This document shows positions 18,170 to 22,712 of a stretch of DNA of 60,801 nucleotides, piece by piece. The notes below the pieces were generated by a model, which did no database searches, was not told the origin of the DNA, and was given only the letters and a program-made list of their open reading frames with translations. Every line of letters begins with the position of its first letter. Position 1 is the stretch's first letter. Source of the DNA: an uncultured Spirochaetaceae bacterium (GTDB taxonomy: Bacteria; Spirochaetota; Spirochaetia; Sphaerochaetales; Sphaerochaetaceae); contig CALXKJ010000013.1 of the NCBI GenBank assembly GCA_944388955.1, positions 1-60,801 on the forward strand, written 5' to 3'. The translations under genes were made by a program, and so were the position numbers.

Positions 18170-20014
18170 ATGGAAATTTCGCAGATGATTCCCTTCGGGA
18201 TTCTCATCATCCTGATATCTTTCGTAATAAACCTTATTGTTGTTCTCATCGTCAGGAAAACTTTCCGCAATGACAAGATGTCCAAGATGATTGTCATGCA
18301 GCAATCGGCCTTCCGTACAGAATCAGCCTCGACGCTTGATAGGATGCGTGTGACGGCCAGAGAATGCGAGGAGAAGGTGAATGTCTCCACAAACCAGGCT
18401 GGCGATATGGTCCATCAGATCAGCGAATCGCTGAAAACGCTCTCTGATTACCAGGAGGATCTTACAGCGCTTCAGAGCGTATGTGCTGAGTATAAGCTCG
18501 CGCTTGAGAAGCTCCGCATATCGACAGACCAGGCAGAAGCGAGGATATCTGCCGTGCAATCAGAGGTCAGGAAGGTCGAATCAGTCAATGACCGCATGGA
18601 TATCTTCCGCGTCGATGCTGAGCGCACGATGAATCAGCTTCAGGACCTCAAGGCAGAGTATGTAAGGCTTGTCGCAGCTACGCAGGAAAGTCTCAAGAGC
18701 GCTGCAGATAACCAGAGAGCAGATAACGAGGATATGCTATCGTCCTTCTCTTCGCAGATGGAGAGAACAAAGGAGCAGTTCTCGCAATATGTCTCTTCGG
18801 AGCGTGCTGAATTCAAGGCTTTCGCCGATGATGAGATGAAGAAAGCAGAGGATCAGGCAATCGATATCGAGAACAGACGTGATGAGATAGTTTCTTCAAT
18901 TGATAAGAGCAAAGCCTCTCTTGAATCTTTCAGCCGCGAGATATCCAACCAGCTCTCGGCTATGAAAGCTGACCTCTCTGTTCTTATACAGTCGGCGGCT
19001 GACGAGATTGAGAAGCATAAGAATGCTCTTTCTGATAATGTCACATCGCTTGGCGGCAAGGTTGATGAAATCATCGCTGAGAGAAAAACCCAGATTGAGT
19101 CCATGATTTCAGACAAGAAGAATGAGATTGAAGCCTCAATCACGGATGCTGATAGCTCGATAAAGCACAGCATAGATTCATTCAATGAGCTTTTCAAAGG
19201 CGAGAATGAGAAGATAAAGGCGGCTATCGAGTCATTGGAGAAGACCCGCAGCGAAACCGGAAGCCTCATAGACGATACGATAGCGGAAGCGATGAGGAAT
19301 ATCGAGAGCGCGCGTTCACTGCTTGATTCAGACAGGATGTCTTTCATCGCCTCCTCACGGGAATCACTTGCGGAAAGCTTCTCCGAAATGCTTGGTGATG
19401 TCAGCGAGCGCTATGAGCGCATAAAGAGCGATGCGGATGCGCTTGTTGACGCAATCGTCGCAAAGACAGCGGAGACAAGGGAGACTATCACGCTTCTATC
19501 CCAAGGGGAACAGGAGAGAATCCAGGATGCTATCGAACGTCTGCAGGAGCTGGACAGGAAGGTAAAAGCTTCCGAGGAACAGCTGACAAAACTTTCTGAG
19601 ACAATCACGTCAACACGCGAGGAGCTATTCTCCGCACAGAAGGAGAGAAGCCGTCTCGATGGTGATATCGATGAGCGGAATAAGACGCTTGAGAAGCTCA
19701 ATGACGATATGCAGAAATCAAAGAGCGCGAGAATCAGCGAGGAAGCTGCGCTTGTACGTCTGAGACTTCAGATCTCAAATCTCGAGAAACAGCGAAAGGA
19801 TGCTGAACGCAAGGCGGAGGAAGCCACACCTGACGACACTTCCGCTGTTACTGCAGAAGAAACGCCTTCTGAGATAAAGCTTGCTGATGAAGAGCCGATT
19901 CCGCCGGAAGAGCCGAAGAAAAAGAAGCCTGAGGAGATGATTGAGGAATTTCCTGATGATATCTTCACCGGAGAGGTCGAGGAAGTCGAATTCTCTGATG
20001 ACGATGAGATATGA
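18170..20014 (+). CDS. Membrane-anchored SpiroCoCo-like coiled-coil protein
   Basis: This 614-aa protein has one N-terminal membrane helix (FGILIILISFVINLIVVLIV) and then almost 500 residues of heptad-like, charged, glycine- and proline-poor sequence, i.e. a very long coiled coil. It ends in an acidic, proline-containing tail (EEPIPPEEPKKKKPEE). The layout matches the spirochaete-restricted SpiroCoCo coiled-coil family; function is unknown there. It follows the HAD gene by 13 bases with a GAGGAGG Shine-Dalgarno. A structural or cell-shape role is only a guess. Confidence 0.7.
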   Translation: MEISQMIPFGILIILISFVINLIVVLIVRKTFRNDKMSKMIVMQQSAFRTESASTLDRMRVTARECEEKVNVSTNQAGDMVHQISESLKTLSDYQEDLTALQSVCAEYKLALEKLRISTDQAEARISAVQSEVRKVESVNDRMDIFRVDAERTMNQLQDLKAEYVRLVAATQESLKSAADNQRADNEDMLSSFSSQMERTKEQFSQYVSSERAEFKAFADDEMKKAEDQAIDIENRRDEIVSSIDKSKASLESFSREISNQLSAMKADLSVLIQSAADEIEKHKNALSDNVTSLGGKVDEIIAERKTQIESMISDKKNEIEASITDADSSIKHSIDSFNELFKGENEKIKAAIESLEKTRSETGSLIDDTIAEAMRNIESARSLLDSDRMSFIASSRESLAESFSEMLGDVSERYERIKSDADALVDAIVAKTAETRETITLLSQGEQERIQDAIERLQELDRKVKASEEQLTKLSETITSTREELFSAQKERSRLDGDIDERNKTLEKLNDDMQKSKSARISEEAALVRLRLQISNLEKQRKDAERKAEEATPDDTSAVTAEETPSEIKLADEEPIPPEEPKKKKPEEMIEEFPDDIFTGEVEEVEFSDDDEI

Positions 20015-20032
20015 GTCTCTGCCCGTTTATGT

Positions 20033-20061
20033 TTGACAGTTTATGCACCCTTTATTATTTT
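20033..20061 (+). promoter_or_regulatory. Promoter for grpE
   Basis: TTGACA (20033-20038) is followed after 17 bases by TATTTT (20056-20061). Ten bases after TTGACA begins CCTTTATTAT (20049-20058), and the same box at the same spacing recurs before dnaK. This suggests a shared promoter type for the chaperone genes. Confidence 0.6.
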
Positions 20062-20072
20062 TCATTGGGTGC
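20045..20072. repeat. Inverted repeat overlapping the grpE promoter
   Basis: GCACCC (20045-20050) and GGGTGC (20067-20072) form perfect six-base arms around 16 bases, and the -10 lies between them. It could be an operator. It is not the HrcA CIRCE element, whose nine-base arms are separated by nine bases. Confidence 0.4.
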
Positions 20073-20123
20073 TGATTGCATTCTATGAAAAAGAAAAGAA
20101 AAAACAAATCAAGAGGTGCCGTG

Positions 20124-20702
20124 ATGGCAGACGAGGAAAAGAAAGAGAATATTGCTGAAGAAGAGAAGCTTGCTGAGGAAGCAGCTTCTTCTGAAACAGG
20201 GGAAACAGAGGATAGCGTAAGCGAGCTGGATGAGCTCAAAGCCAAAGTCAAAGAGCTTGAAAACCAGCTTCTGGATGCAAAAGACAAGGCCCTGAGAGAG
20301 GCAGCGGAGACTGAGAATTACAAGAAGAGACTCCGCGCAGACAAGGAGAGTGCCGTAAAATTCGCCAATGAGGCTTTGATTAAGGACCTTCTGGATCCTC
20401 TCGATAATTTCTCACGTGCAATTGAGGCGGCGGAGCAGACAAAGGACTTCGACAAGATGCGCGAAGGCGTAGTAATGGTCGAGGATCAGATTCAGACTAT
20501 CCTGAAGAACAACTGGGGACTTGAGGTTTATTCACCTGAAGGTGAGGATTTTGATCCATCAGTCATGGAAGCCTGCATGGTTCAGGAGCAGGATGGTCTT
20601 GATAAGGAGAAAGTCCTTCAGGTCTTCATGAAAGGCTACAAGCTTCATGGCAAAGTCGTGAGAGCCGCAAAGGTAATGGTCGGCAAGCCAAAATCGAATT
20701 GA
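20124..20702 (+). CDS. grpE: Nucleotide exchange factor GrpE
   Basis: GrpE (192 aa from this start) releases ADP from DnaK. An acidic disordered N-terminus precedes a long helix (LDELKAKVKELENQLLDAKD) and the beta-wing domain with the signature HGKVVRAAKVMVGK near the end. ATG 20124 follows AAGAGG with good spacing. An in-frame ATG at 20085 would add a lysine-rich leader unlike the family. No hrcA lies upstream. Confidence 0.93.
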   Translation: MADEEKKENIAEEEKLAEEAASSETGETEDSVSELDELKAKVKELENQLLDAKDKALREAAETENYKKRLRADKESAVKFANEALIKDLLDPLDNFSRAIEAAEQTKDFDKMREGVVMVEDQIQTILKNNWGLEVYSPEGEDFDPSVMEACMVQEQDGLDKEKVLQVFMKGYKLHGKVVRAAKVMVGKPKSN

Positions 20703-20727
20703 CGATTACAGGCGCCTTTATTATCTT
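20699..20727 (+). promoter_or_regulatory. Promoter for dnaK
   Basis: TTGACG (20699-20704), overlapping the grpE stop, is followed after 17 bases by TATCTT (20722-20727). Ten bases after the -35 begins CCTTTATTAT (20715-20724), identical in sequence and position to the grpE promoter. dnaK can therefore probably be transcribed apart from grpE. Confidence 0.55.
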
Positions 20728-20732
20728 AACGC

Positions 20733-20751
20733 TGGATGTATAAGACATCCA
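20733..20751 (+). repeat. Hairpin in the dnaK leader
   Basis: TGGATGT-ATAAG-ACATCCA gives a perfect seven-base stem with a five-base loop just downstream of the predicted dnaK transcription start. It has no T-run, so it is not a terminator. It may stabilise the 5' end or act as a regulatory structure. Confidence 0.4.
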
Positions 20752-20783
20752 TACTTAATGAAATTATTTGGAGATGACATAAA

Positions 20784-22712
20784 ATGGGAAAGATTATTGG
20801 TATAGACCTTGGTACAACAAATAGCTGCGTAGCTGTGATGGAAGGCAACGAGCCTGTGGTTATCGCTAACAGCGAAGGTGATAGAACGACTCCATCTGTC
20901 GTTGGCTTCACTGATACCGATCGTCTTGTGGGTAAGCCTGCAAAGAACCAGATGGTAACAAACCCGGAGAATACAGTTTATTCAATCAAGAGATTCATGG
21001 GCCGCAAGTTCCATGAGGTTTCCGAGGAAATCGGCATGGTGCCTTACAAGGTGGTCTCAGGTGCTAATGACGAGATAAAGGTTTCAGTCAGAGGTCACGA
21101 GTATTCACCTCAGGAAATCTCAGCAATCGTTCTTCAGAAGATGAAGAAGACAGCTGAGGATTATCTTGGCGAGCCAGTAACAGAAGCTGTTATTACAGTT
21201 CCTGCTTACTTCAATGACGCACAGCGCCAGGCCACAAAGGATGCTGGACGTATTGCAGGCCTTGAAGTGAAGAGGATCGTCAATGAGCCTACAGCGGCAG
21301 CACTCGCATATGGCTTCGGAAAGGATAAGTCAGACAAGGAAGAGACAATCGCTGTCTACGACTTCGGTGGCGGTACATTCGATATCTCGATTCTTGAGCT
21401 TGGCGATGGCGTATTCGAAGTAAAGTCAACAAATGGTGATACACACCTTGGTGGTGATAACATCGATCAGGTCATCATCGACTGGATGGTAGCTGAGTTC
21501 AAAAAGAATAACGGTATCGACCTTTCAAAGGATAAGATGGCTCTTCAGAGACTCAAGGAAGCTGCAGAGCAGGCGAAGATCGTGCTTTCTTCTTCTACTA
21601 CTACGACAATCAATCTGCCGTTCATCACAGCAGATGCGACAGGCCCGAAACACCTGCAGATGGAGCTCACGAGAGCTAAGTTCGAGCAGATGATTGCTCC
21701 TCTTGTTGAGAGAACAAGAATCCCGTGTGAGAACGCGCTCCGCGATGCTGGCATTACAGCTTCAGGCGTCGATGAGGTCATCCTTGTCGGTGGTTCATCG
21801 AGAATCCCATGCGTACAGGCGCTTGTAAAGGAGCTTTTCGGAAAGGAGCCTCATAAGGGAGTAAATCCTGATGAAGTTGTTGCGGTAGGTGCTTCAATTC
21901 AGGGTGGTATTCTCAAAGGCGATGTTAAGGATGTTCTTCTGCTTGATGTTACTCCGCTTTCACTCGGTATCGAGACACTTGGCGGTGTATGCACAAAGCT
22001 TATAGAGAGAAACACGACTATTCCTACAAGGAAGAGCCAGATTTTCTCCACAGCAAGCGATGGACAGACAGCTGTATCAATCCATGTTCTCCAGGGAGAG
22101 CGTGAGCTGGCGTCCCAGAACAGGACACTTGGTACATTCAACCTCGAAGGCATTGCACCAGCTCCGCGTGGAGTACCTCAGATTGAAGTCACATTCGATA
22201 TCGATGCAAACGGCATTGTCCATGTTTCTGCAAAGGATCTTGGAACAGGCAAGGAGCAGAAGATCAGAATTGAGTCTTCATCAGGTCTTTCAGAGCAGGA
22301 AATCGACAGAATGGTAAAGGATGCCGAGGCCCATGCTGCTGAGGATAAGAAGGCAAGGGACACAATCGAGGCAAAGAATAATGCCGAGAGCGTGGTCTAT
22401 GCTACAGAAAAGGCACTCAAGGATTACGGCGACAAGATTTCCTCTGATGAGAAGGCGAAGATTGAGAGCGCAGTACAGGAATTAAAGGATGCTCTTGCAA
22501 ATGCTAACGCAACTGCGGAGGAGCTGAAGTCGAAGACAGAGAAAGTCCAGCAGGCTTCTATGGAGCTTGGGCAGAAAGTCTACGAGAGTGCTCAGCAGCA
22601 GAACCAGACCGCAGGCGGCGCATCATCCGCAGGTCCTGATACATCATCTTCTGCAAGCCAGAATCATGGGGATGATGGCACGATGGATGCGGATTACGAA
22701 GAGGTCAAGTGA
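20784..22712 (+). CDS. dnaK: Molecular chaperone DnaK (Hsp70)
   Basis: DnaK (642 aa) is the ATP-driven Hsp70 chaperone. It begins [20 protein letters not shown], has the second phosphate-loop signature [16 protein letters not shown], the connect motif with [14 protein letters not shown], the linker [15 protein letters not shown], and the substrate-binding domain to the helical lid. The low-complexity tail ends in the acidic DADYEEVK expected for DnaK. It lies between grpE and dnaJ. Confidence 0.98.

What the first reader, a model, noticed from the sequence alone, without database searches (positions are those of the whole stretch)
20033..20727. grpE and dnaK share one promoter design, TTGAC[AG]-N10-CCTTTATTAT
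Both promoters have the same ten-base box at the same distance from TTGAC, and no CIRCE element or hrcA is present. The grpE copy is also flanked by GCACCC...GGGTGC. This could be a heat-shock promoter class or operator specific to this lineage.
Basis: seen in the sequence. Interest (0 to 1): 0.5.

Follow-up and report, generated by a model that had tools for sequence, protein, structure and literature searches.

The report
Chaperone promoters with leader hairpins
In a gut spirochaete in which the usual heat-shock switches were not found, the genes for the chaperones GrpE and DnaK each have their own conserved but essentially ordinary promoter, and their messages tend to begin with a small RNA hairpin whose letters differ between species while the pairing is kept.

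Summary
The shared sequence is real and conserved. The window belongs to a Candidatus Ornithospirochaeta-like spirochaete. TTGAC-N14-TTRTTANNTT occurs 88 times in 48 genomes of the genus (7 for the reversed control), and 78 of these lie at grpE or dnaK. The "CCTTTATTAT box" is not a separate operator: it is the end of a 17-bp spacer plus part of the -10 (TATTTT/TATCTT), so both promoters are TTGACN-N17-TANNTT. tRNA, tmRNA and other genes of the same genome use -35/-10 pairs of that kind, so no heat-shock sigma is required. Two features set chaperone genes apart. (1) dnaK, clpB and many grpE promoters have TTAT just before the -10, where other promoters have TG. (2) Predicted transcripts of dnaK, grpE, clpB and groES often begin with a short hairpin whose pairing is kept while its letters change. 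groES does not share (1); hsp20 has a sigma-54-like promoter. hrcA was found in 0 of 139 family genomes, and no CIRCE in the loci examined. The GCACCC...GGGTGC flank is not conserved; its right half is the left arm of the grpE leader hairpin. Best explanation: sigma-70 promoters feeding 5'-hairpin mRNAs; the regulatory step is inferred, not shown.

The parts
20033..20061 (+). grpE promoter: -35 TTGACA (20033-20038), 17-bp spacer ending TTAT (20052-20055), -10 TATTTT (20056-20061)
   Evidence: Exact sequence. 36 of 48 genus genomes match TTGAC-N14-TTRTTANNTT at grpE. Scores 16.0 without and 13.4 with the four bases before the -10 on a matrix of 27 stable-RNA promoters of the same genome.
20049..20058 (+). 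CCTTTATTAT copy 1: spacer end plus the first part of the -10
   Evidence: The box alone is at chance in the genome (13 against 11), and its CC is not conserved in relatives.
20067..20083 (+). grpE leader hairpin GGGTGC-TGATT-GCATTC (two G-U pairs); an extended form 20063-20087 pairs CAT with the ATG at 20085
   Evidence: The strict scan (at most one G-U) does not count this copy. Of 46 grpE leaders in the genus, 27 pass the strict scan against 7.9 expected.
20085..20702 (+). grpE (lysine-rich start MKKKRKNK; another possible start at 20121)
   Evidence: ORF list; NCBIfam GrpE models, the best at 133.1 bits, just under its cut-off of 137; a GrpE match in all 48 genus genomes.
20699..20727 (+). 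dnaK promoter: -35 TTGACG (20699-20704, overlapping the grpE stop codon), spacer ending TTAT (20718-20721), -10 TATCTT (20722-20727)
   Evidence: Exact sequence. 42 of 48 genus genomes match the motif at dnaK. In other genera, 27 of the 39 examined loci with dnaK have a TTGAC-N16-19-TANN[TA]T upstream of dnaK.
20715..20724 (+). CCTTTATTAT copy 2
20733..20751 (+). dnaK leader hairpin TGGATGT-ATAAG-ACATCCA (7 bp), starting 6 nt after the -10, where the transcript is expected to begin
   Evidence: In the genus 41 of 47 dnaK leaders have such a hairpin against 8.3 expected; stem letters covary in a chosen subset.
20784..22712 (+). dnaK; its Shine-Dalgarno GGAG at 20770 lies outside the hairpin
   Evidence: NF001413, TIGR02350
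22787..23908 (+). ORF next downstream, dnaJ by its sequence (read by eye, no family scan)

Best explanation
grpE and dnaK are each served by their own promoter of the primary sigma factor (RpoD, sigma-70 type), TTGACN-N17-TANNTT. With clpB they form a recognisable set in which TTAT stands before the -10 instead of the TG that is usual in this genus. Their transcripts, and those of many groES genes, begin within a few bases of a short stem-loop. In a family without HrcA, and without a CIRCE or RpoH in the sequence examined, I think the common regulatory handle is the 5'-end stem-loop acting in the RNA (protecting the message from 5'-end decay, or tuning its stability with temperature), on top of a strong promoter active at all times. 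Shown by sequence: the promoters, their conservation, the tetrad, the hairpins and, on chosen subsets, their covariation. Inferred: use by RpoD, the start sites, and any effect on stability or heat response.
For: Motif conservation: 88 hits in 48 genomes against 7 reversed, 78 of them at grpE or dnaK. In four grpE promoters the spacer is 18 rather than 17 (L075, L077, L080, L082), as expected of a promoter rather than an operator. Housekeeping likeness: tRNA and tmRNA promoters of the same genome are mostly TTGAC/TTGCC/TTGAT-N17/18-TANNNT. On their matrix grpE and dnaK score 16.0 and 12.8 without the four bases before the -10, against a median of about 12 for the 27 training promoters themselves. 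Tetrad: TTAT in dnaK 40 of 47, clpB 15 of 18, grpE 24 of 42; TG within these four bases in dnaK 2 of 47, clpB 0 of 18, against 23 of 27 stable-RNA promoters and 15 of 19 and 14 of 15 promoters of two control genes. Hairpins: dnaK 41 of 47 (8.3 expected), grpE 27 of 46 (7.9), groES 14 of 26 (3.6), clpB 14 of 18 (3.5). After removal of similar leaders: 22 of 27, 16 of 31, 7 of 13, 10 of 13, with 0, 0, 1 and 0 of 1000 shuffles reaching these. In the next 36 nt downstream the same scan finds 0 of 47, 0 of 46, 0 of 26 and 0 of 18. Covariation on chosen subsets: dnaK 4 of 4 and grpE 3 of 3 pairs changed on both sides, 0 of 500 shuffles reaching the covariation score. Other leaders: 79 of 398 upstream windows and 7 of 36 other predicted promoters (8 of 37 counting dnaK itself). 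No HrcA.
Against: No transcript data: start sites are taken from the -10. The hairpin idea came from looking at these same leaders, so the tests are post hoc. Shuffles ignore relatedness: a window 200 nt upstream of the dnaK leaders, inside grpE, gives 27 of 47 in the same scan, and one 100 nt upstream of the grpE leaders 17 of 46. The subsets for the covariation counts were chosen by me, nearly all from leaders with visible hairpins, which favours pairing; two further measures, the number of changed pairs (grpE 82, dnaK 23 of 500 shuffles as high) and of pair types (332 and 373), are not or hardly beyond chance. Two of three MAFFT alignments gave no consensus fold; the grpE pairs were then named by me. 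The window's own grpE hairpin has two G-U pairs and fails the strict scan. Six dnaK leaders of the genus have none in the strict scan (L065, L077, L079, L080, L081, L085). Outside the genus 11 of 27. hsp20 is not convincing: 10 of 20, but 8 of 20 in two upstream windows, and 20 of 1000 shuffles reach the clustered count. clpB scores low on the housekeeping matrix (8.1, below 26 of the 27). grpE has TG in 17 of 42, so the tetrad is not strict. The dnaK -35 overlaps the grpE stop codon, which explains part of its conservation. The 27 stable-RNA promoters were picked by eye.
Confidence: 0.52

Rival explanations
1. A dedicated heat-shock promoter class read by an alternative sigma, most likely the ~295-aa RpoS-like sigma encoded beside groES, with TTAT before the -10 as its signature.
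For: The tetrad TTAT separates dnaK, clpB and many grpE promoters from TG promoters. In 42 of the 44 genus genomes with groES this sigma gene lies close by and divergent (hand count). Its best NCBIfam model is RpoS, under the cut-off. In two loci of another genus (L286, L306 of g16) grpE and dnaK both have TGAG at this place. clpB fits the housekeeping matrix poorly.
Against: -35 and -10 of grpE and dnaK fit the housekeeping matrix. groES itself, beside the sigma gene, does not have TTAT (0 of 30). A sigma-54-like promoter lies upstream of the sigma gene in 25 of 30 loci, so its supply may be conditional, whereas dnaK and grpE need constant supply. RpoH models score below their cut-offs.
Confidence: 0.2
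2. The box or the flanking repeat is an operator for an unknown repressor of the chaperone genes.
For: Conserved sequence around the -10 in the genus; no HrcA to do the job; inverted repeats just after the -10.
Against: The repeats differ between species and between grpE, dnaK, clpB and groES, so one protein could not read them as DNA letters. The GCACCC/GGGTGC flank is not kept. The spacing varies by one base as in promoters.
Confidence: 0.1
3. Ordinary strong sigma-70 promoters, the leader hairpins being only generic mRNA stabilisers without a role in stress; the heat response, if any, lies elsewhere (for example the sigma-54 system at hsp20).
For: Same evidence for housekeeping likeness; the sigma-54-like promoter of hsp20 offers another stress route.
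Against: Hairpins are at background in other predicted leaders of the genome (7 of 36) but common in four chaperone genes, and the tetrad differs from other promoters.
Confidence: 0.18

Closest known systems
Primary sigma (RpoD/sigma-70) promoters with -35 TTGACA and a TANNNT -10
   Same: -35 TTGAC, spacer 17 (or 18), -10 TANNTT, a place expected for a transcript start; the same kind as tRNA promoters of the genome
   Different: TTAT rather than TG before the -10; -10 TATTTT/TATCTT rather than TATAAT
RpoH (sigma-32) heat-shock promoters (CTTGAA / CCCCATnT, recalled)
   Same: Serve grpE, dnaK and clpB; a particular sequence just before the -10
   Different: No CCCCAT, -35 is TTGAC, and neither of the two sigma proteins scanned passes the RpoH cut-offs
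HrcA-CIRCE
   Same: An inverted repeat near the start of dnaK and groES transcripts, which could form a stem at the mRNA 5' end
   Different: No hrcA, no CIRCE letters, stems are shorter and differ between genes and species
5'-terminal stabilising stem-loops such as that of E. coli ompA (recalled)
   Same: Short stem-loop at or very near the predicted 5' end, sequence free to vary, outside the Shine-Dalgarno in dnaK
   Different: Here found on several chaperone genes of one lineage; no stability data

Membership tests
Primary sigma-70 promoter | -35 TTGACA-like and -10 TANNNT separated by 16-18 bp | tested here: met
   Both sites 17 bp; scores 16.0 and 12.8 on a matrix of 27 stable-RNA promoters; conserved in the genus
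Primary sigma-70 promoter | Used by RpoD holoenzyme; start site 6-8 nt after the -10 | not testable with these tools
   Needs transcript mapping or run-off transcription
RpoH (sigma-32) regulon | An RpoH sigma in the genome | tested here: inconclusive
   PF04542 finds three sigma genes in this genome. The two larger ones score below the RpoH cut-offs; the ~186-aa one was not scanned; the assembly is 95.61% complete
RpoH (sigma-32) regulon | CCCCATnT-type -10 (recalled consensus) | tested here: not met
   -10 regions are TTATTATTTT and TTATTATCTT
HrcA-CIRCE regulon | hrcA gene | tested here: not met
   0 of 139 family genomes, positive in 7 of 14 control genomes
   0 in the window at up to 3 mismatches; 0 of 178 loci at up to 4 of 18, one strand scanned, the element being its own reverse complement
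RNA thermometer | Stem covers Shine-Dalgarno or start codon and opens with heat | tested here: inconclusive
   dnaK: Shine-Dalgarno at 20770, stem ends at 20751, not covered. grpE: the extended stem reaches the ATG at 20085. Opening with heat not tested; no Rfam thermometer match at 19900-20900 up to E = 1
5'-terminal stem-loop of mRNA | Stem near the predicted 5' end, commoner than in controls | tested here: met
   dnaK 41 of 47, grpE 27 of 46, groES 14 of 26, clpB 14 of 18, against shuffles and other leaders; downstream windows 0
5'-terminal stem-loop of mRNA | Stem kept by compensatory changes | tested here: inconclusive
   dnaK 4 of 4 and grpE 3 of 3 pairs with changes on both sides and a covariation score no shuffle reached, but on subsets of 11 and 16 leaders that I chose; larger or unchosen alignments gave no fold
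5'-terminal stem-loop of mRNA | Effect on message stability | not testable with these tools
   Needs half-life measurement

The most novel reading that the evidence does not exclude
A spirochaete family without HrcA, and in the sequence examined without CIRCE or RpoH, runs its chaperone genes through RNA: grpE, dnaK, clpB, groES and perhaps some hsp20 messages, made from two kinds of promoter (sigma-70 and sigma-54), begin with a freely evolving 5' stem-loop that sets message life or translation with temperature, together with a TTAT-marked subclass of primary-sigma promoters.
Probability: 0.22. Interest if true: 0.7.

Novelty: new variant of a known kind. Interest (0 to 1): 0.4.

Why it matters
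How bacteria without HrcA, CIRCE and RpoH control chaperones is little known to me from general knowledge. This lineage gives a comparative case: the promoters look ordinary, but chaperone transcripts share a predicted 5'-end structure, common across 48 genomes although its letters change. If the structure controls message life, heat-shock control here is largely post-transcriptional. The result also gives the general promoter form of an uncultured gut spirochaete genus (TTGAC-N17/18, often TG, TANNNT), which helps to read its other genes.

Tried and rejected
Rejected: the ten-base box as a stand-alone operator (at chance by itself; CC not conserved). Rejected: the GCACCC/GGGTGC flank as an element. 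Rejected: CIRCE. De novo promoter discovery by EM on 209 upstream regions of the genome gave a weak, over-fitted model and was dropped in favour of stable-RNA promoters. RNAalifold on MAFFT alignments of 21 dnaK and 16 grpE leaders gave no structure, in my view because stems change register; a chosen subset of 11 dnaK leaders gave 4 pairs. Rfam near the site gave only a snoRNA-like match far under its gathering score. hsp20 hairpins are weakly supported. Literature searches (9 of 10 allowed) showed no paper on heat-shock promoters of this family in their listings; two of them returned nothing. I saw passages of one paper, PMC8762339, on Chlamydia; all other papers were seen only as search listings. 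Not done: lon, htpG and rRNA promoters, and a genome-wide search for RpoN (a motif scan of the fetched sequence found no RpoN box and one sigma-54-activator-like motif, in L216). The hairpin scan needs at least 5 bp with 2 or more G-C and at most one G-U; the window's own grpE hairpin fails it.

Full report
What was checked. Both copies of TTGAC[AG]-N10-CCTTTATTAT are exact at 20033-20058 and 20699-20724 on the + strand. In the whole genome (2,116,308 bp, 33 contigs) the pattern with TTGAC has only these two exact matches. The ten-base box alone occurs 13 times against 11 for the reversed control. The first copy precedes grpE and the second precedes dnaK. The -35 of the second overlaps the stop codon of grpE.

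Where it comes from. Relatives by GrpE in the named collection include Candidatus Ornithospirochaeta stercoravium (80% identity) and stercoripullorum (78%) and uncultured Spirochaetaceae (up to 81%). The genus set of the genome search holds 48 genomes including this one, and all 48 have a GrpE match.

Conservation. I read the DNA upstream of grpE and dnaK in the 48 genomes. The conserved form is TTGAC-N14-TTRTTANNTT: 42 of 48 at dnaK and 36 of 48 at grpE (one search counts 39 at grpE with a slightly looser form). One grpE locus (L064) is cut by a contig end. Others have the same elements with an 18-bp spacer (grpE of L075, L077, L080, L082) or one changed base (grpE of L047, L052; dnaK of L086, L088, L089, L090). 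L085 has more distant variants and L091 neither. A search of the 48 genomes finds 88 matches against 7 for the reversed pattern. By position 78 of the 88 are at grpE or dnaK. Of the other 10, one (G047, C9:193, at a contig end) looks like the grpE promoter missing from the cut contig; this was not verified. In the family (139 genomes, 22 genera) 84 genomes have a match. In genus g2 all 16 genomes have one, and 12 of 16 have a pair flanking grpE. In g16 none of 26 genomes has one.

What the box is. Aligned, the elements are -35 TTGACN, spacer 17 or 18, -10 TANNTT. CCTTTATTAT is the last bases of the spacer plus TAT of the -10. Stable-RNA promoters of the same genome are of the same kind. From tRNA and tmRNA leaders I picked 27 promoters by eye; one search lists 40 tRNA genes, and leaders at contig ends, inside tRNA operons or without a readable promoter, and those without a fetched locus, were dropped. 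They give -35 mostly TTGAC or TTGCC and -10 TATTTT, TAGATT, TAATAT and the like. On the matrix of these 27, without the four bases before the -10, grpE scores 16.0, dnaK 12.8, groES 14.0 and clpB 8.1; the median of the 27 themselves is about 12. So the hexamers of grpE and dnaK are those of the primary sigma; clpB fits less well.

What differs. The four bases before the -10 are TTAT in dnaK 40 of 47, clpB 15 of 18 matches in 30 loci, and grpE 24 of 42; TG occurs in them in 2 of 47, 0 of 18 and 17 of 42. Stable-RNA promoters have TG there in 23 of 27, and two control protein genes in 15 of 19 and 14 of 15. groES has TG in 20 of 30 and TTAT in 0 of 30. In two g16 loci (L286, L306) grpE and dnaK both have TGAG at this place.

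The hairpins. I looked for a perfect stem of 5 bp or more starting within 14 nt after the -10: dnaK 41 of 47 (8.3 expected from dinucleotide shuffles), grpE 27 of 46 (7.9), groES 14 of 26 (3.6), clpB 14 of 18 (3.5), and hsp20, measured from its sigma-54-like element, 10 of 20 (1.8). The denominators are leaders in which the promoter pattern was found, from 48, 48, 30, 30 and 30 loci. After removal of similar leaders: 22 of 27, 16 of 31, 7 of 13, 10 of 13, 4 of 12; the shuffles reached these 0, 0, 1, 0 and 20 times in 1000. Background: 79 of 398 windows upstream of genes of the genome, and 7 of 36 other predicted promoters with a leader of at least 30 nt. Other windows of the same loci: 0 of 47, 46, 26 and 18 in the 36 nt just downstream for dnaK, grpE, groES and clpB. 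But 27 of 47 in a window 200 nt upstream of the dnaK leaders, inside grpE, and 17 of 46 in one 100 nt upstream of the grpE leaders, show that relatedness alone can give high counts. For hsp20 two upstream windows give 8 of 20, so its hairpin is not convincing.

Covariation. On 11 dnaK leaders chosen by me, all four pairs show changes on both sides and 0 of 500 shuffles reach the covariation score. On 16 chosen grpE leaders, with three pairs named by me, the result is the same. The choice favours pairing, and the counts of changed pairs (23 and 82 of 500 shuffles as high) and of pair types (373 and 332) are hardly or not beyond chance. Two larger alignments gave no fold. In other genera 11 of 27 dnaK leaders have a hairpin (2.6 expected): 5 of 7 in g16, 2 of 6 in g2, none of those examined in g12, g14 and g21. 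The window's dnaK hairpin is TGGATGT-ATAAG-ACATCCA, 20733-20751. Its grpE hairpin, GGGTGC-TGATT-GCATTC at 20067-20083, has two G-U pairs and fails the strict scan.

No known heat-shock switch was found. hrcA: 0 of 139 genomes. CIRCE: none. Sigma genes found in this genome by PF04542: RpoD (803 aa), a sigma of about 295 aa beside groES, and one of about 186 aa. The ~295-aa protein matches the RpoS model best, below its cut-off, and RpoH models more weakly, also below. hsp20 has a sigma-54-like promoter, in this genome TTGGCACGCTTGTTGCA (20 of 30 loci fit the pattern). A similar element precedes the ~295-aa sigma gene (25 of 30 groES loci; that the next ORF is the sigma was recognised by eye, not tested in each). 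RpoN itself was not searched for genome-wide; a motif scan of the fetched sequence had no RpoN box, which is no evidence of absence.

How it most likely works. Shown: two conserved promoters of the primary-sigma kind, a shared tetrad, and leader hairpins that are commoner than in the controls and whose letters vary. Inferred: RpoD reads them; transcripts start at the hairpins; the hairpins act as RNA. They differ in letters between grpE, dnaK, clpB and groES, which speaks against one DNA-binding repressor. The likeliest role is control of message life at the 5' end. For dnaK the ribosome site lies about 19 nt beyond the stem, so a classical thermometer is unlikely there. For grpE an extended stem reaches the ATG at 20085, so it is possible there.

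Verdict. The reading as a separate heat-shock box is mostly wrong, since it is a primary-sigma promoter, but a weaker form (a TTAT subclass for grpE, dnaK and clpB) stands. The leader hairpins are the more interesting result and went beyond the finding. No paper on heat-shock promoters of this group turned up in the listings of my searches, which cover open-licence papers only. Odds were lowered slightly (best explanation 0.55 to 0.52, novel case 0.25 to 0.22) after the added control.

Noticed in passing
G000 contig C4:30466-30771 (L345) and hsp20 loci L337-L366: hsp20 genes of the genus have a sigma-54-like promoter (in this genome TTGGCACGCTTGTTGCA) instead of a sigma-70 one; 20 of 30 loci fit the pattern.
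   Followed up: partly
G000 contig C17:19646-21007 (L151, L216): A ~295-aa RpoS-like sigma gene lies divergent from groES, in this genome with a small ORF between, in 42 of the 44 genus genomes with groES (hand count), and has a sigma-54-like element upstream in 25 of 30 loci. This recalls the RpoN-RpoS cascade of Borrelia (recalled).
   Followed up: partly
L296, L297 (genus g22 of the family): dnaK of these two genomes has TTGGCACGC-N3-TTGCA upstream, a sigma-54-like promoter, and no TTGAC-N16-19-TANNWT was found there.
   Followed up: no
L151:902-916 and L151:942-955 (between the sigma gene and groES): GGGTCACAATGACCC, an inverted repeat, and a second GGGTCA...GACC nearby.
   Followed up: no
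L266 (G000 contig C8, about 107000): RpoD is long, 803 aa, with a long acidic stretch near its N-terminus.
   Followed up: no
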